Source of the DNA: Bdellovibrio sp. BCCA | GTDB lineage: Bacteria; Bdellovibrionota; Bdellovibrionia; Bdellovibrionales; Bdellovibrionaceae | DNA: 64,000 bases | Assembly: GCF_037996825.1 (NCBI RefSeq) | Contig: NZ_JBBNAC010000001.1 | Location: 1,922,001-1,986,000 of the forward strand | Direction: 5' to 3' | Shown here: positions 2,345 through 51,724 of the stretch, piece after piece | Layout: the number at the start of each line of letters is the position of its first letter | Numbering within the stretch: the first letter of the stretch is position 1 | Position numbers and translations under genes: made by a program | The notes under the pieces: generated by a model | The model's input: only the letters and a program-made list of their open reading frames with translations | What the model was told of the DNA's origin: nothing | The model's database searches: none

Positions 2345-2446
2345 GACGGGGAGTCGGGTCTCATTGTGAGACAAAAATACCAGTATGGTATTTTTGCGCG
2401 TAAGCCCCGAAGGGGTTGAGGGCAGGAGCCCGAAACCCGTCTCCCC
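2345..2446. repeat. Structured intergenic repeat, copy 1
   Basis: A folded stretch between the bamB operon and the next gene. An outer inverted repeat (GGGGAGTCGGGT at 2348-2359 against ACCCGTCTCCCC at 2435-2446, 11 of 12 paired) encloses four hairpins: GTCTCA/TGAGAC (2358-2372, sharing two bases with the outer arm), AAAAATACC/GGTATTTTT (2373-2395), CCCC/GGGG (2405-2415) and GGGC/GCCC (2420-2431). The 60-base core 2373-2432 recurs at 49338-49397 with the three inner hairpins conserved. Hairpin AAAAATACC/GGTATTTTT could also terminate transcription in either direction. No open frame with a ribosome site is seen here. Confidence 0.75.
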
Positions 2447-2567: not shown

Positions 2568-4913
2568 ATGCGTAAGATCTATACTCTTGTACTGGCATTC
2601 TTAATCGCTACAGGCGCAGTGGGCGGCACGGCTCGCGCTGAAATGACGGCTGAACACAGAGCCCAATTGACTCAATTGGATTATCTTTTGGCGGTCGATC
2701 GTTTGGATTTCTATTCAGATGGTCTAGCGGATTATTTGATGGATCACGATCAGAAATTGGCTGCTGAAGCCATTCGCCGTATTGAACCTGAAGACTACGC
2801 AAAAGAACGATACACACAACAAGATCTCAACAATCCAGATAAATGGAATGAATTGATCTTGCGCATGTTACATAAGAAATTCCCCGAATTTAAGAACCTC
2901 ACTTTGAAAGATATCGAGTGGAATTATAACTTCTTCCGTAAAAAATTAATGGAAGGCTTTAAGGCTGATCCGATCACTTTAAAACGTGAAGCTTCTGTTT
3001 CTGGTTTAAACAACGAGCCTGTGACTTACAACAAAAGATCCATTCCCAATGTGGATGGCAAAGCTATTTTGCTAGATGCTGAACGATATATTTCTGAAAA
3101 AACAACTCGCGCACTTTTCTGGGATGCAGCGATCACTGGTAAAGCGATTGAATTCCACATGGGTACTGAGCGCGACTTCCGTCAAAGAGTGTCTCAAGAA
3201 GACCGAGAAGTCGTTGCGGAAGTAAAAACTCGTTCTGCGAACTACAATAAAATTTATTTGGTCTATGATGCTCGCACAAAAGAATATTCTTATGCGTTTA
3301 CGCGTATTTCTGGCGATGACCGAGTGAAACACTTGATCGCTCAATTGCGTATTTTGAAATACGAAAACAAAGTGGCTTTAAAGAGTGATTTTGTTCGTGT
3401 GTATGGAAATGCCAATGCCGTTCACAGACAGCAAGAACAACGTCTTGTGGAGCTATTTAAAACTCTTCCAAAAGCAGACATGGTTGTGATTGGTCAAAAG
3501 TCTGCGATCGGCAACGTAATTGCAATGGCTGGTATGATGGCTCAAGTTCAACCAGATATTAAATCCGTTGTCGGTCCTGAGAAATCACAAATTCAAAAAC
3601 TTTCTCAACGTGTGACTGAGACAGGAACTTATTTCTCTGTAACAACAAAAGCTCCTGTTGTGAAAACAGAGTTTGAAAAAATGCAAAATCCAATGGCTTC
3701 TAGTTATGAAATCGTAACTTCAGAACAGCCAAGTCATGACATTTCAGATGTTCTTTTAGAAACAAAAGACGGTCGCATCGTGCGCTGGAGATTTATCTCT
3801 AATATGTGGGGAGATGAAGTTGTTCCTGTCGCTCGCGCTATCAAGAATTCCGGCCACGACAAAGTGGTTTATATCGGAACTGCTGGTGGAATTATCGGAA
3901 AAGGTCTAAAAGTCGGGGACGTGGTTGCTCCCTCTAAGACTTACACCCAAGATGGCAAATTGTTTGATCTTGAAAAACCTTCTTACGGTACGGATTTCGT
4001 AAAAACAGGTCAGACTTTGGGGCAAGTGACGTCTCCGTTTGATGAAACTAAAAAGTGGTTTGATAAATGGAGCAACAAGATCGACGTTGTTGAACTTGAG
4101 ACGGGTTACTTAAAAGAAAACCTCGGTCCTAAAGTCAGCTTCCAACCATATCTTCTTGTCTCAGACGTTGTTGGCTCTGAGCATGAGACACTGGCAGTGG
4201 CTGCGGCGGACTCTGGAAAACGCAAGAACGGTCAACTAAAGCTTTTAGAGAGCTTGTTTGTGAATAACGGAATCAAAGCTCCGGTTTCAAATGTTGAAAT
4301 GATCTCGGCTGAAGGCGCAGTTAAAGCAATGTATCATAAAATTGATTCATTAAGAGCATCTCGCGACGTCACTTCGAAATTGCAATTAACTCAATTGGCT
4401 CTTCGCAAAGGCTTAAAAACGGATGCTGAGTTGGAAGCTTTAATTAAAGCAGAACCTTCTTTTGATCGTCAGCTTTTGATGGATAAGCTTGAGAAATATT
4501 CTGGTGCTTTGGAATTGATCTCTAAAAAGATTTCTGGAGTGAGCTTTGCGATCGTTGGTGGCGAAGAACTTTTGAATGGCACTTGGAATCCTAAGAAAGC
4601 TTTGAAGTTGCAAGTGATGGCAGGAAACATGTCTGCAGCTGATGCTAATAAAGTGTATGCTGCGGAACTTTCTAAAATCCAATCTGTGATGGGTAAAGAA
4701 CTCAGCATTGAAATGGTGACTTTCGATGCGGAAAAAACTCGTCAAGCGGTGTTCTTTAACTCGAACTCAAAACGAGTTCTTGCAAACCACTACGAAAATA
4801 AAATTCTTAAGAAATTAGGTTTAACTAAAGAAATCGATAAAAATGGTGGCGTTCGTTTCCGCGAAGTCACTGAGTTTGCTGGAGGTATGAGATGCGAAGC
4901 CGTCCTTTTGTAA
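2568..4913 (+). CDS. Secreted protein with nucleoside-phosphorylase-like (PNP/UDP) domain
   Basis: The ATG at 2568 is preferred over an upstream GTG (2559) because GAGG at 2555-2558 is correctly spaced for it. The 781-residue product has a signal peptide (about 25 residues, ending near ARA). After a 380-residue N-terminal region of unknown fold comes a segment that reads like the PNP_UDP_1 / MTA-SAH nucleosidase fold. It has the glycine loop G437-x-A-G-G441 followed by VGDVVAPS, the V-E-L-E511 segment equivalent to the substrate-binding M-E, and S532-D533 equivalent to the catalytic S-D. The family cleaves N-glycosidic bonds of nucleosides. Export is unusual for it. The C-terminal ~200 residues are helical and unrecognised. 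The gene overlaps the next, an ADP-ribosyltransferase candidate, by 22 bases, implying coupled translation. Confidence 0.7.
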   Translation: MRKIYTLVLAFLIATGAVGGTARAEMTAEHRAQLTQLDYLLAVDRLDFYSDGLADYLMDHDQKLAAEAIRRIEPEDYAKERYTQQDLNNPDKWNELILRMLHKKFPEFKNLTLKDIEWNYNFFRKKLMEGFKADPITLKREASVSGLNNEPVTYNKRSIPNVDGKAILLDAERYISEKTTRALFWDAAITGKAIEFHMGTERDFRQRVSQEDREVVAEVKTRSANYNKIYLVYDARTKEYSYAFTRISGDDRVKHLIAQLRILKYENKVALKSDFVRVYGNANAVHRQQEQRLVELFKTLPKADMVVIGQKSAIGNVIAMAGMMAQVQPDIKSVVGPEKSQIQKLSQRVTETGTYFSVTTKAPVVKTEFEKMQNPMASSYEIVTSEQPSHDISDVLLETKDGRIVRWRFISNMWGDEVVPVARAIKNSGHDKVVYIGTAGGIIGKGLKVGDVVAPSKTYTQDGKLFDLEKPSYGTDFVKTGQTLGQVTSPFDETKKWFDKWSNKIDVVELETGYLKENLGPKVSFQPYLLVSDVVGSEHETLAVAAADSGKRKNGQLKLLESLFVNNGIKAPVSNVEMISAEGAVKAMYHKIDSLRASRDVTSKLQLTQLALRKGLKTDAELEALIKAEPSFDRQLLMDKLEKYSGALELISKKISGVSFAIVGGEELLNGTWNPKKALKLQVMAGNMSAADANKVYAAELSKIQSVMGKELSIEMVTFDAEKTRQAVFFNSNSKRVLANHYENKILKKLGLTKEIDKNGGVRFREVTEFAGGMRCEAVLL

Positions 4914-6574
4914 AAAGAACTCTTCCTTGTTTGGCGGTGGTCCTGGCTGTAACAATGCAAGCGGTACCGGCGCACGCGGGTCTTTTTGATAAGATCATGT
5001 CAGCAGCAACGCAGATTTTAAACAATGCTAAGACGACTCCATCTCAACCACTTAAAAGTGGAATGACGGGGGCGCAGGCAGCCAATGCGACTCAAGCGTC
5101 TGGTACTGCAAAAGCACCGTTCAATGTCGAAGCAGATGTTATTGGAAAAATCGTTGCTGAAACTCAGCCGTCGCCTTATTCAACAGATCTTCGTAAGACG
5201 TCCAAAGCCGTGGCTGAAAAAGTAAGCCTTGTGGCGACAGAGACTCATACGGAAATCATTCCAGAATACACGGAAAAAGGTCTGATTTTCCGTATTCGTT
5301 ATGATGAAACGGCTCTTCAGAATCCAAAACTTCTTGTGAAAGATTTGGCTTTGGCAAGAATGCTCACTTCGACTTCAAATTATTGGGGCACTCAATCCAG
5401 CATCTTTGAAGGCACCATGAATGAAAAACTTCGTGCTGAAGTGGAATCTCCGCATGCGATTGCGGAACTTATCACAAATGTTCGCGAAGGCAGTCCGACA
5501 GCGAAAGCTCGTTGGAATACTTTGCAGGCGGATCTTTTAGAAAATGTTTCTGTAAAACAAAACATTCTTCAAGAAATGGGTCTTAGTTCAAATGTCGTTC
5601 AAGATATTCGTGAAGAATTAAAAGCTAAATCTGCAGCTCTTGATGAAGCGGCCGCTCAACACGCGCGCAAACAACAAAAGGCCTTGGATAAATGGAAATC
5701 TGAGACGGGTGCGCTTGATAAAATGGAAGCTATGCAAGACAAGCTTGATGATTTGATCTTAAAGAATGACCGTAAAGGCGTTCGTCAAATGCTTGAAGCT
5801 TATCTACCTTGGTCTGTGATGGAGCCCGTAGAAGCAAATACATGGAAAATCTGGCTTGAAGCCATCGAGCATCCAGATGCTTCAAAATCAACGGTCGCAT
5901 TCCGTGGTTTGAAATACGATACGGATAAAATCCAACGCAAACAAACTGCGAATGGCGAAGTTTATGGATTTATGTCGACAGTTTTAACTAAAAACCAAGG
6001 AAGTTATACGCGTCGTTTGAGATCTCTATCTACAAACCGCGAAAAAAATGGAGATATTGGATTTAAAGTTCACGGTGAAAATATCAGATCGACAAAGATC
6101 ACAGATCAGATGACGGCTCATGCAAGAAGTCCTGTGGCGTCGAGCTTTATCTCATTTACATACGATCCAAATATCGCTTACAGATTCATGGGTCAAAACG
6201 TAACAAAACAAGTTAAAGGAGAAAACGTTTCGGTTCCATACGGTGGTCTTTTGGTAGTTAAAATGGATTCACGCCGAATGATTCCAAACGTGCCATCTAT
6301 GTACAGCAATGAAATCGAACTTTTGGCGCCATTGTTGGTATTCCCAGATGAAGTTGTTAAATACAAAGAAGGATCATTTACCAATGAATATTCATTTGCT
6401 AATTTCGTAAAAGAAATCTCTGATAAAACCGGGATTAATTTCACGAACTGGTCTACGGCGGCAGATGCCAATAATGAAGGCCTTAGAGAAAGATACAATC
6501 GCGAAGGTCATGAGTTCCTGAAACAAATGACGGAAGTGAATTTAAAAGCGATGAGTTGCTCAAAAGTATTCTAA
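4892..6574 (+). CDS. Secreted ADP-ribosyltransferase-like protein
   Basis: 560 residues with a signal peptide cut near AHA-G (residue 29). The first 300 mature residues are helical with a charged coiled-coil-like stretch (about 245-300). The C-terminal part carries, in order, the three landmarks of R-S-E ADP-ribosyltransferases: R338 in AFRGLKYD, S421-F-T423 in FISFTYDPNIAYRF (the STS strand followed by the usual D-x-x-x-A-x-x-F), and E474-I-E476 in NEIELLAP (the E-x-E loop). Such enzymes move ADP-ribose from NAD to a protein or nucleic acid. E-x-E usually goes with arginine targets. GGAGG six bases before the ATG fixes the start inside the end of the phosphorylase-like gene. The target is unknown; a role in prey is inferred. 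A terminator follows. Confidence 0.68.
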   Translation: MRSRPFVKRTLPCLAVVLAVTMQAVPAHAGLFDKIMSAATQILNNAKTTPSQPLKSGMTGAQAANATQASGTAKAPFNVEADVIGKIVAETQPSPYSTDLRKTSKAVAEKVSLVATETHTEIIPEYTEKGLIFRIRYDETALQNPKLLVKDLALARMLTSTSNYWGTQSSIFEGTMNEKLRAEVESPHAIAELITNVREGSPTAKARWNTLQADLLENVSVKQNILQEMGLSSNVVQDIREELKAKSAALDEAAAQHARKQQKALDKWKSETGALDKMEAMQDKLDDLILKNDRKGVRQMLEAYLPWSVMEPVEANTWKIWLEAIEHPDASKSTVAFRGLKYDTDKIQRKQTANGEVYGFMSTVLTKNQGSYTRRLRSLSTNREKNGDIGFKVHGENIRSTKITDQMTAHARSPVASSFISFTYDPNIAYRFMGQNVTKQVKGENVSVPYGGLLVVKMDSRRMIPNVPSMYSNEIELLAPLLVFPDEVVKYKEGSFTNEYSFANFVKEISDKTGINFTNWSTAADANNEGLRERYNREGHEFLKQMTEVNLKAMSCSKVF

Positions 6575-6592: not shown

Positions 6593-6623
6593 AGGCTCTA
6601 AATCGATGGATTTGGAGCCTTTT
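6593..6623 (+). terminator. Rho-independent terminator after the PNP/ART gene pair
   Basis: Arms AGGCTCTAAATC and GATTTGGAGCCT (one G-U pair) with loop GATG, then TTT. It lies 19 bases after the stop of the ADP-ribosyltransferase-like gene and closes that two-gene unit. Confidence 0.8.
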
Positions 6624-49433: not shown

Positions 49434-50069
49434 ATGAACCCTCGCCTTAAAAGCTCAAAAAAATGGACTGCATTCCCTAAAGAATACTCAGATCAGATTC
49501 AGGCCGTTTTTAAAGAAAATTTCGCGCAATATCTTGAAGAAGGTGAACTTATCATCGAAGGCCGTATCTACACCGAAGAAATTATGCTTCGCGTCGGATA
49601 CCTAGAAAAAGGCCGTCTTGCGCAAGCCAACTTCGAAGTTTCCATGAATTATTCTCAAGATGACGCCGACGCCGTTAAAAGAATCCACAACTGCGTAGAC
49701 GCAGCCGCCAGCATGATGATGGAGTACTTTGAAAACGACGGCGAAGTCGACTTCCCGTACACATGGAAAGAATATCCATTCCAAGGCAAAAAACTTTATC
49801 TTCAATTCTCGACGGAAAATTCTTCTTTAGAAGCTCAAGCCAATAAGCTTTTGGGCGTCGATGATGAATCTCTTTATCACGATGAAGATGAATCCGATGA
49901 AGACGCGCTTTCTCGCGCAGAACAAAGCGAAGAACTTTCTCCTCCCCGCGATGAAGATGAAGATTTTTCTTCTGAAGAAGACGAGGAAGATGAAGAGTCC
50001 GACAGCGAAGATCGCGGCCCCCGCATGTTCAGTGGTAAAAAATCAAAAAAGAAAGACGATCTTCACTAG
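49434..50069 (+). CDS. Protein with highly acidic C-terminal tail, unknown
   Basis: 211 residues from the ATG at 49434, chosen because TGGAGG is eight bases before it. The earlier ATG at 49413 has no ribosome site. A compact N-terminal domain (about 1-130, FKENFAQYLEEGELIIEGRIYTEEIMLRVGYLE) is followed by a ~70-residue run of Asp, Glu and Ser and a basic SGKKSKKKDD end. The acid tail recalls nucleoplasmin-like or DNA-mimic proteins, which is only an analogy. It is convergent with and overlaps the YiiX-type gene by four bases. Confidence 0.65.
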   Translation: MNPRLKSSKKWTAFPKEYSDQIQAVFKENFAQYLEEGELIIEGRIYTEEIMLRVGYLEKGRLAQANFEVSMNYSQDDADAVKRIHNCVDAAASMMMEYFENDGEVDFPYTWKEYPFQGKKLYLQFSTENSSLEAQANKLLGVDDESLYHDEDESDEDALSRAEQSEELSPPRDEDEDFSSEEDEEDEESDSEDRGPRMFSGKKSKKKDDLH

Positions 50070-51640
50070 AAGACTTTTCCGCAAGAGCCTACACCTGTTG
50101 TGGCCATGACTTTCTCTTCAAATTTAGAGAGTTCAGCCACCATCAGCTTGCCTTGGGCTTTTGCCATTTTACGAAGCTGCATAGGGCCTACGGGCTTTCC
50201 CAGCTTTTCCAAAGCTTCAACTTGTACCTGCAGGGCCGCTCTTAATTTCGGTGTCATCACGTCATTAAGAAATACAAAGAAAGCCATTTGTTTTACATTA
50301 ATCGCATCGGGAATTTGATCAATCATACCGACTTTACCTGCAAATTCTTTCGGAAGAATTCCAGACGCCGCCATCTTTTTAAGAGCTTCTTTGTCGATGG
50401 GTTTTGAAGAGATTAAATTTAAAACTTCAGCGACGCGTTTTAACGTTTCTCGATTGTTTGCGACCTCACTTAAAAAAGCATCCACGATCGCCATTTCAAT
50501 ACGGTCTTGCGAAAGTTTAGAAACATCAATGCGAGCGCCAACAAGTTTAAATTCAGAATTAAGTTCCAGATCTCCTGGAGCCGGCACCTTATTCGTATTC
50601 ATATTAAGAACCTTTAAAAGTTCTTCGCGACTTTTTGAAATCGGACTCCAAACCGATTGAGTGTAAGGATTTTGTGGCCCGGAAAAACCGCCACGCAAAT
50701 ACAATTCATAAGAAACGGCAGAGCAGAACATCCCACGCTCATTCACATTTCCCGGAGTCATCGAGAAGTCATATTTGTAAGCCGCTTTGTTAAAGGGATC
50801 TCCACCTGTCCGCTCGTACATTTCTTTAATCATGTTTTCCGCACCGGCTTCGACTTTCCCTTGCACGGAATTATCGGAGCCTTGATAGCGATAAATATAC
50901 ATACGTGTCTTAGAACCTTCGATATAGTCTTTCGCCATCTTACGAAGCTTCACTCCGTCTTCAACATCCGCTTCTGGTGACAGCAACTCGCCTTGGCCGT
51001 CGATATAAACCGGCGTCGAGTGCGAATAGATATGCGGATGATCCATAGTTAAGGCAATAAAACTAGATGACCCAAAGCCCGTCGCCTTAGAAAGAACCAC
51101 GTCTCCCGTTTGCACTTGGAAATTCCTTAAAGAAGCAAGTTTCGCCGAACTCGTCGCCTTACCTGCAAGACTTATTTCAGAAGGGAAATTTGCAAACTTT
51201 TTACTTCCGGCATAAAGACTTTCTTCAGCCAGCATCTGCATAAGGAATAATGAATCCTGACGAGATTTCATCCCCATGGATTTTTGCGTACGAAGTTCTT
51301 GGCGTAATTCCAAAAGCAAAACACCGAGGTTACGGTAGTCTTCCGCCGTTACAAGTTTTGCGGACTCCACCACCGTTTTGATACTTTTAAAAACATGCTG
51401 CTCATTTTTTGCTTGAGAAAGAGCCACCATTAAAGGCTCGCGCAATTCTTGAACACTCAAGCCACTGGATTTTCCATGCATCAAAAGCTTCGTCCAAGAA
51501 TCGATCCCGATGTTTTCAAGCCCGTGAAGGTTGGCTCCTTGTGTCTCGCTTTGAGGCAGACGAACCGTCGACGCGTAGACTGGCACCGTCAGTGTTAAAG
51601 CCATCAACACAGAAAACGATTTTACAAGGGGTTTAGACAT
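50066..51640 (-). CDS. Secreted YiiX-type (permuted NlpC/P60) papain-fold protein
   Basis: 524 residues. The ATG at 51640 follows GGAGG and starts a signal peptide ending at VYA. The central third matches the permuted NlpC/P60 (YiiX/DUF830) fold: VQTGDVVLSKATG, the histidine in YSHSTPVYID, and a late cysteine in MFCSAVSYELY. Some such enzymes cut cell-wall amides or lipid links. The N-terminal ~130 and C-terminal ~200 residues are helical and unrecognised, so it is larger than the family norm. The export signal suggests action on prey or own wall. Confidence 0.7.
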   Translation of the reverse strand: MSKPLVKSFSVLMALTLTVPVYASTVRLPQSETQGANLHGLENIGIDSWTKLLMHGKSSGLSVQELREPLMVALSQAKNEQHVFKSIKTVVESAKLVTAEDYRNLGVLLLELRQELRTQKSMGMKSRQDSLFLMQMLAEESLYAGSKKFANFPSEISLAGKATSSAKLASLRNFQVQTGDVVLSKATGFGSSSFIALTMDHPHIYSHSTPVYIDGQGELLSPEADVEDGVKLRKMAKDYIEGSKTRMYIYRYQGSDNSVQGKVEAGAENMIKEMYERTGGDPFNKAAYKYDFSMTPGNVNERGMFCSAVSYELYLRGGFSGPQNPYTQSVWSPISKSREELLKVLNMNTNKVPAPGDLELNSEFKLVGARIDVSKLSQDRIEMAIVDAFLSEVANNRETLKRVAEVLNLISSKPIDKEALKKMAASGILPKEFAGKVGMIDQIPDAINVKQMAFFVFLNDVMTPKLRAALQVQVEALEKLGKPVGPMQLRKMAKAQGKLMVAELSKFEEKVMATTGVGSCGKVF

Positions 51641-51724
51641 AAAGAACCTCCATGGAAAATGAAGATTCAAGCTGTGCGCCAAGCTACCTTAGCTTGCGCC
51701 CTGTGCGCCCAGCGCAAAAAAGAA

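What the first reader, a model, noticed from the sequence alone, without database searches (positions are those of the whole stretch)
2568..6574. Two overlapping exported genes pair a nucleoside-phosphorylase fold with an ADP-ribosyltransferase
Seen: overlapping signal-peptide genes (22 bases, both with good ribosome sites) and one terminator at the end. The first has G437-x-A-G-G441, V-E-L-E511 and S532-D533 of the PNP/MTAN fold. The second has R338, S421-x-T423 and E474-x-E476 of R-S-E ADP-ribosyltransferases. Known: ADP-ribosyltransferases use NAD, and PNP-fold enzymes act on N-glycosidic bonds. Inference: the two could form a two-part secreted NAD- or nucleoside-acting module, for example prey effector plus processing enzyme, or a toxin with its limiter. 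I know of no described system with this pair.
Basis: partly seen in the sequence, partly recalled or inferred. Interest (0 to 1): 0.85.

Follow-up and report, generated by a model that had tools for sequence, protein, structure and literature searches.

The report
Exported PNP-fold/ADP-ribosyltransferase pair, often fused
In Bdellovibrio and its relatives, two exported proteins, one related to enzymes that cut nucleosides and one that looks like an ADP-ribosyltransferase (an NAD-using enzyme), are almost always made together and in many relatives are one single protein, which points to a previously undescribed two-enzyme tool used outside the cytoplasm.

Summary
Two signal-peptide genes (781 and 560 aa) overlap by 22 bases. 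Gene 1 has a PNP/MTAN-fold domain (PF01048): a short homologue passes the Pfam cut-off (E 8e-8), and GTxG, E511 and S532-D533 are conserved in about 50 homologues. Gene 2 matches no sequence library. Its R338, S421 and E474-x-E476 are conserved in 60-62 of 62 homologues, and profile-profile comparison with bona fide ADP-ribosyltransferases of the same phylum aligns those motifs (83%; C-terminal half 93%, P 3.5e-7), against at most 0.4% for 12 unrelated families and reversed controls. The decisive new result is linkage: of 50 genomes of the phylum with a long gene 1, 24 have the pair adjacent and 23 have it fused into one protein of about 1,280 aa. In one genus the order is reversed, with a different ADP-ribosyltransferase lineage. 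So it is a real, conserved, exported two-enzyme module. What it acts on (NAD, ADP-ribosylated target, nucleosides) and whether it attacks prey remain inference. Structure prediction failed, because only three sequences could be used. I found no description of this pair. It is a new combination of two known superfamilies.

The parts
2568..4913 (+). Gene 1: exported 781-aa protein with a PNP/MTAN-fold domain
   Evidence: ORF and translation; PF01048 E 1.4e-4 in this protein, 14 of 16 homologues match, best 8e-8 above the gathering score
2568..2639 (+). Signal peptide of gene 1 (MRKIYTLVLAFLIATGAVGGTARA)
   Evidence: Read directly from the translation; homologues also start with signal peptides or lipoprotein signals
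3060..3527 (+). Conserved domain before the PNP domain (G199, G249-x-D251-R252-x-x-H255 invariant or nearly so), also present in short homologues
   Evidence: Alignment A2 and deep counts
3735..4307 (+). PNP-fold domain of gene 1 (residues about 390-580)
   Evidence: Pfam PF01048 at 421-473; hhalign to PNPs of the phylum Prob 63%, P 7e-5; MTAN/PNP chains of the PDB are the top profile matches, E 0.0018
3876..3890 (+). G437-T-A-G-G441 glycine motif
   Evidence: Conserved in 52/52 (G437, G440) homologues
4092..4100 (+). E509-L-E511 (ribose-binding Glu position of MTAN/PNP)
   Evidence: E511 51/51; assignment to MTAN Glu174 from own knowledge
4161..4166 (+). S532-D533 (catalytic Asp position of MTAN/DeoD PNP)
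   Evidence: S532 50/50, D533 48/50; assignment to MTAN Ser196-Asp197 from own knowledge
4892..4913 (+). 22-base overlap of the two genes with GGAGG ribosome site at 4881-4885: translational coupling likely
   Evidence: Sequence; same 22-base overlap in 13 of 15 adjacent pairs of the family
4892..6574 (+). Gene 2: exported 560-aa protein, candidate R-S-E ADP-ribosyltransferase
   Evidence: motif conservation; profile-profile match
4892..4978 (+). Signal peptide of gene 2 (MRSRPFVKRTLPCLAVVLAVTMQAVPAHA)
   Evidence: Read directly from the translation
5741..6391 (+). ADP-ribosyltransferase-like domain (residues about 284-500)
   Evidence: Deep alignment A4 of 54 homologues; hhalign 83% to PF03496-type proteins
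5903..5905 (+). R338 of the FRG strand
   Evidence: 60/61 homologues; aligns to the FRG of true ADP-ribosyltransferases in a separate sub-profile test, P 4.5e-4
6152..6160 (+). S421-x-T423 (F-x-S-x-[TS], counterpart of (Y/F)xSTS)
   Evidence: S421 61/61; aligned to F-x-S-T-S; motif defined in PMC6628389
6311..6319 (+). E474-x-E476 (E-x-E)
   Evidence: E474 61/62, E476 62/62; aligned to E-x-E-V-L-x-P
6557..6571 (+). C-terminal tail C-S-K-V-F shared with paralogues and with other exported proteins
6594..6623 (+). Hairpin GGCTCTAAATC-gatg-GATTTGGAGCC followed by TTTT, probable terminator of the two-gene unit
   Evidence: Read by eye; not listed by the automatic scan

Best explanation
This is one exported two-enzyme module. 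Gene 2 (or the C-terminal half of the fused form) is an R-S-E type ADP-ribosyltransferase: it would bind NAD+, break the nicotinamide-ribose bond, and pass ADP-ribose to a target or to water. Gene 1 (or the N-terminal half of the fused form) is a PNP/MTAN-fold enzyme that breaks a base-ribose bond. The two are made in fixed ratio by coupled translation or as one chain and act together outside the cytoplasm, in the envelope or the prey-filled space. Shown: export signals, overlap, conserved catalytic residues, constant linkage and fusion. Inferred: that both are active enzymes. Inferred and least certain: that the two halves work on the same NAD-derived substrate, one at the nicotinamide end and the other at the purine end or on the released products.
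For: Linkage: in the phylum search, 24 of 50 genomes with a long gene 1 have the pair adjacent and 23 have it fused, with only one unlinked, one without a partner and one cut by a contig end. In one genus the order is reversed (ART first), and its ART belongs to a lineage otherwise found next to fusions, support 100/99, so a PNP part that lacks the fused ART keeps another ART beside it. Catalytic residues of both halves are nearly invariant. PNP homology is significant. Profile-profile comparison aligns the F-x-S-x-T and E-x-E motifs with true ARTs (Prob 83%, C-half 93%, P 3.5e-7), and the FRG of R338 separately (P 4.5e-4); 12 unrelated families and reversed profiles give at most 0.4%. Signal peptides or lipoprotein signals throughout. 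Link of PNPs to the NAD pathway: xanthosine phosphorylase XapA can take part in NAD+ salvage from nicotinamide (PMC3923242); PF01048 effectors of Detocs and CBASS degrade (d)ATP (PMC10952713).
Against: Gene 2 has no significant match in Pfam, NCBIfam, PHROGs or the PDB by sequence. AlphaFold models of both domains failed with the three sequences allowed (pLDDT 33 and 40). The distance from R338 to S421 (83 residues) is longer than in the PF03496 homologues examined here, with an inserted conserved stretch (KNQGSYTRRLRSL). The water-activating Glu of MTAN (Glu12) could not be located in gene 1. Gene 2 paralogues also occur with other exported partners, so the ART part is not obligately tied to a PNP. 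No activity, expression or localisation data exist.
Confidence: 0.55

Rival explanations
1. Prey-directed effector pair: both proteins reach the prey and attack prey targets independently, gene 2 by ADP-ribosylating prey proteins and gene 1 by draining prey nucleotides (like the PNP effectors of Detocs/CBASS that destroy ATP). The linkage reflects joint delivery, not a shared substrate.
For: Window genome is a Bdellovibrio (same-genus records are named Bdellovibrio); export signals; PF01048 effectors degrade (d)ATP (PMC10952713); patchy presence, 13 of 24 genomes of the genus have gene 1.
Against: Fused relatives carry lipoprotein signals, which would anchor them on the predator; 11 of 24 Bdellovibrio genomes lack gene 1; no delivery signal or expression data; fusion and conserved reversed-order pairing suggest more than co-delivery.
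Confidence: 0.25
2. Toxin with limiter: one exported protein restrains or reverses the other (for example the PNP-fold part trims ADP-ribosylated products or acts as a pseudo-enzyme that holds the ART inactive).
For: Tight coupling, conserved overlap.
Against: Catalytic residues of both parts are nearly invariant; both are exported and frequently fused, while limiters normally stay where they protect the producer.
Confidence: 0.07
3. Gene 2 is not an ADP-ribosyltransferase but an unrelated fold whose conserved R, S and E-x-E coincide with the motif.
For: No sequence-library match; insertion between R338 and S421; structure test inconclusive.
Against: hhalign places exactly the three motif elements, in order, on true ADP-ribosyltransferases with P 9e-6 (whole domain) and 3.5e-7 (C-half), controls at most 0.4% probability.
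Confidence: 0.12
4. Nutrient-scavenging enzymes: the pair digests NAD and nucleosides released from dead prey so that the predator can take up the pieces; ADP-ribosylation of proteins is not the point.
For: PNP fold is a salvage fold; exported; PNPs can enter nicotinamide salvage (PMC3923242).
Against: The ART part keeps an E-x-E motif that in known enzymes goes with transfer to protein (arginine) rather than pure NAD hydrolysis (own knowledge; PMC6628389 links E-x-E to toxins that modify actin); about half of the genus does without it.
Confidence: 0.2

Closest known systems
R-S-E (cholera-toxin group) mono-ADP-ribosyltransferases, Pfam PF03496 and PF01129
   Same: FRG strand with the Arg, (Y/F)-x-S-x-[TS] strand, E-x-E before L-x-P; profile-profile match to members from the same phylum
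   Different: No HMM match to either family; extra conserved helical part (L-P-W..M-E-P-x-E) and an inserted KNQGSYTRRLRSL stretch between R338 and S421; paired or fused with a PNP fold
PNP/MTAN (phosphorylase) superfamily, Pfam PF01048
   Same: Glycine motif GTxG, V-x-x-P-x-x-E-T, E-x-E511, S532-D533; significant Pfam match in homologues
   Different: Exported; preceded by an additional conserved domain and followed by another; W-G-D in place of the usual loop before the central strand; window protein itself scores just under the Pfam cut-off (21.8 against 25.1 bits)
PNP effectors of anti-phage systems (Cap17 of Detocs and CBASS)
   Same: PF01048 domain turned against nucleotides (PMC10952713)
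   Different: Those are cytoplasmic and tied to defence sensors; this one is exported and tied to an ART
ADP-ribosyltransferase-fold antibacterial effectors of type VI secretion (Rhs/Tne toxins)
   Same: ART-type domains used between bacteria (PMC13324451, PMC13285283, titles and abstracts only)
   Different: No type VI secretion parts seen here; Sec-type or lipoprotein signals; no immunity gene recognised; PNP partner

Membership tests
R-S-E ADP-ribosyltransferase superfamily | Catalytic Arg on the first strand of the NAD site | tested here: met
   R338 in FRG, 60/61 homologues; sub-profile alignment to FRG of true ARTs P 4.5e-4
R-S-E ADP-ribosyltransferase superfamily | (Y/F)-x-S-T-S motif | tested here: met
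   F419-x-S421-x-T423: S421 61/61, position 423 T or S in 57 of 60; aligned to F-x-S-T-S. The middle T of STS is not kept
R-S-E ADP-ribosyltransferase superfamily | E-x-E (catalytic Glu last) in the ARTT loop | tested here: met
   E474 61/62, E476 62/62; aligned to E-x-E-V-L-x-P
R-S-E ADP-ribosyltransferase superfamily | ART fold with clustered R, S, E | tested here: inconclusive
   AlphaFold failed, mean pLDDT 33 with three sequences
R-S-E ADP-ribosyltransferase superfamily | NAD-dependent transfer or NAD hydrolysis | not testable with these tools
   Needs protein
Pfam PF03496 / PF01129 | HMM score over the curated cut-off | tested here: not met
   No match in 54 homologues at E 10; own genome has no PF03496 or PF01129 match
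PNP/MTAN superfamily (PF01048) | HMM score over the curated cut-off | tested here: met
   Met by short homologue L057 6493-7704 (32.4 against 25.1 bits, E 8e-8); window protein 21.8 bits, E 1.4e-4, below cut-off
PNP/MTAN superfamily (PF01048) | Ribose-binding Glu and catalytic Asp (S-D) | tested here: met
   E511 51/51, S532 50/50, D533 48/50
PNP/MTAN superfamily (PF01048) | Phosphate site (phosphorylase) or water-activating Glu (nucleosidase) | tested here: inconclusive
   Neither could be located with confidence; hhalign to PNPs covers residues from about 406 on
Toxin-antitoxin or effector-immunity pair | Partner that stays with the producer and neutralises the toxin | tested here: not met
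   Both proteins have export signals and are often one chain

The most novel reading that the evidence does not exclude
A secreted two-step enzyme in which an ADP-ribosyltransferase and a PNP-fold glycosidase attack the two N-glycosidic bonds of NAD (or the ART tags a target and the PNP-fold half then removes the adenine, leaving a scar that ordinary ADP-ribosyl hydrolases may not remove), displayed by predatory bacteria and relatives as a single or coupled machine.
Probability: 0.2. Interest if true: 0.85.

Novelty: new variant of a known kind. Interest (0 to 1): 0.7.

Why it matters
Both enzyme superfamilies are well known, but I found no report of them as one exported module. The pairing is strong: adjacent or fused in 47 of 50 genomes, across three families of the phylum. 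If both halves are active, Bdellovibrionota carry an extracytoplasmic NAD- or ADP-ribose-handling machine, a chemistry not reported for them in the papers searched. Because the fused form is a single protein with clear active-site residues in both halves, the question is directly testable with one purified protein and two point mutants. The ART part is also a new, diverged branch that sequence libraries miss.

Tried and rejected
Structure: AlphaFold of residues 270-560 of gene 2 and 165-580 of gene 1 with the window and two Bdellovibrio records only; mean pLDDT 33 and 40, so no fold search was made. Direct library searches of gene 2 and its profile: only chance-level matches. Viral contigs and plasmids: no relatives. 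Internal PNP duplication in gene 1: the order of predicted elements of residues 165-320 looks like a PNP half-domain, but hhalign gives no support (0.2-0.3%); not claimed. C-terminal C-x-x-V-F tail as a general sorting signal: 5 of 267 signal-peptide ORFs against 0 of 377 cytoplasmic ORFs, but two of the five are the genes that suggested it, and the genome-wide DNA pattern is not clearly above its reversed control and is confounded by T-rich terminators; kept as an aside. Toxin-limiter reading: rejected as unlikely because both halves keep their catalytic residues and are exported or fused.
Full report
What is there. Two genes on the + strand, 2568-4913 (781 aa) and 4892-6574 (560 aa), overlap by 22 bases; both proteins begin with a Sec-type signal peptide, and gene 2 has a GGAGG site inside gene 1. 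Upstream lie an ORF of 259 aa, a BamB-like protein and a small lipoprotein-like ORF, which are shared synteny in the genus and not part of the unit.

Gene 1. Pfam PF01048 (PNP/MTAN fold) matches the window protein just under the cut-off (E 1.4e-4). 14 of 16 homologues match, and a short homologue (L057 6493-7704, 404 aa) is over the cut-off (E 8e-8). The top PDB matches of the family profile are MTA/SAH nucleosidases and PNPs, though only at E 0.0018. Across about 50 homologues G437, T438, G440, E493, E511, S532, D533 are nearly invariant. A profile comparison with ordinary PNPs of the phylum (Prob 63%, P 7e-5) aligns V-x-x-P-x-x-E-T with the G-P-x-Y-E-T motif of PNPs, and the VELE and SD regions with their counterparts. 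The Glu/Asp positions are those of MTAN Glu174 and Asp197 (own knowledge). So the catalytic apparatus looks intact; phosphorolysis or hydrolysis cannot be told.

Gene 2. No library finds it. In 62 homologues R338, S421, E474 and E476 are nearly invariant, and so are F419 and the FRG context. To test kinship I collected bona fide PF03496 and PF01129 proteins from the same phylum, aligned them and compared profiles. The whole-domain comparison gives Prob 83%, P 9e-6, and puts F-x-S-x-T on F-x-S-T-S and S-x-Y-x-x-E-x-E-x-L-x-P on S-x-Y-x-x-E-x-E-V-L-x-P. The C-terminal half alone gives 93%, P 3.5e-7. The R338 region alone puts FRG on FRG, P 4.5e-4. Twelve unrelated families and reversed ART profiles give 0.1-0.4%. 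The motif set is the one described for cholera-toxin-group enzymes (PMC6628389). I therefore take gene 2 as a diverged R-S-E ADP-ribosyltransferase, with the fold itself untested: the AlphaFold attempts failed for want of an alignment.

Linkage. A profile search of 369 genomes of the phylum found gene 2 in 53 and gene 1 in 59. Counting only long gene 1 homologues (over 300 bits), 50 genomes remain. In 15 of the Bdellovibrio family and 9 of another genus the two genes are adjacent on one strand. In 23 genomes (families f12 and f26) they are one open frame of about 1,040-1,320 aa, PNP part first, ART part last; two of these frames are broken by contig ends or sequence faults but still span the junction. 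One genome has both genes apart (G025), one has no partner (G245), and one is cut by a contig end (G325). In the reversed-order genus the ART belongs to a lineage (support 100/99) whose other early members sit next to fusions. The simplest reading is that there the fused ART was lost and a neighbouring ART paralogue took its place. Such replacement is strong evidence that a PNP part needs an ART beside it. The reverse is looser: gene 2 paralogues also occur with other exported partners.

Mechanism. ART enzymes open the nicotinamide-ribose bond of NAD; PNP-fold enzymes open base-ribose bonds. The most economical account of the coupling is a shared substrate chain outside the cytoplasm, with the ART half consuming NAD and the PNP half acting on the purine end, on nicotinamide riboside or on the adduct. 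That PNPs can enter nicotinamide chemistry is known from XapA (PMC3923242); that PF01048 proteins can be turned against nucleotides is known from Detocs and CBASS (PMC10952713). Lipoprotein signals on most fused forms of family f12 place them on the envelope. Whether the target is prey, competitor, phage or free nucleotides is open.

Literature. No paper found in the library joins Bdellovibrio and an ADP-ribosyltransferase of its own (titles and abstracts), nor an ADP-ribosyltransferase with a PNP fold as a secreted pair. The 2025 predation proteome of B. bacteriovorus does not mention either in its main text. The pair is accessory in the genus: 13 of 24 genomes have gene 1.

Verdict. Observation confirmed; module strongly supported; ART assignment well supported by profile comparison but not by structure; biological role open. 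New combination of known superfamilies.

Noticed in passing
window 6557-6571, 4896-4910, 50066-51682 (-); G000 C1 2111191-2112282 (L270 11191-12282) and 2271102-2273183 (L278 11102-13183): A C-terminal tail C-x-x-[VIL]-[FL] (CSKVF, CEAVLL, CGKVF, CSKVF, CEMVFQ) ends five exported proteins: gene 1, gene 2, an unidentified 538-aa exported protein, an exported Peptidase_C26/GATase and an exported ABC1 atypical kinase; none of 377 cytoplasmic ORFs has it. It could be a terminal sorting or anchoring tag of exported enzymes; numbers are small and a genome-wide DNA pattern test was not conclusive.
   Followed up: partly
L120, L121, L126-L131, L135, L153, L154 (fused proteins) and L123-L125, L136-L142: Fused and separate forms of families f12 and f26 mostly keep a Cys near the C-terminus (for example TCKDVIKMFM, TCMEAMRRLMQII); the fused form has it once at its end, separate forms once each.
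   Followed up: partly
L048 6840-8186, L052 6442-7767, L053 6742-8067, L054 9373-10698: Gene 2 paralogues in four Bdellovibrio genomes are followed by another exported protein of about 440 aa without any family match (G-F-G-H-Q-S-A-G motif, also ending in CSxVF), so the ART part has at least one other constant partner.
   Followed up: partly
L049 5644-6726, L050 5737-6819, L051 5982-6812: A further gene 2 paralogue is followed by exported metallopeptidase-like proteins (weak Aspzincin_M35 match in L051).
   Followed up: no
L057 4302-8990 (genome G064): The short PNP-fold homologue lies between an exported radical-SAM protein and an exported cytidylyltransferase-like (NadD/CoaD type) protein, overlapping both by a few bases: another exported nucleotide-handling cluster.
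   Followed up: no
L187 1501-1923 (genome G177, contig C206): An ordinary PF01129 ADP-ribosyltransferase gene lies about 1.2 kb upstream of a PNP-ART fusion on the same strand.
   Followed up: no
window 2358-2395: Two hairpins, GTCTC-attgt-GAGAC and AAAAATACCA-gta-TGGTATTTTT, between the upstream ORF and gene 1, probable terminator of the upstream operon.
   Followed up: no
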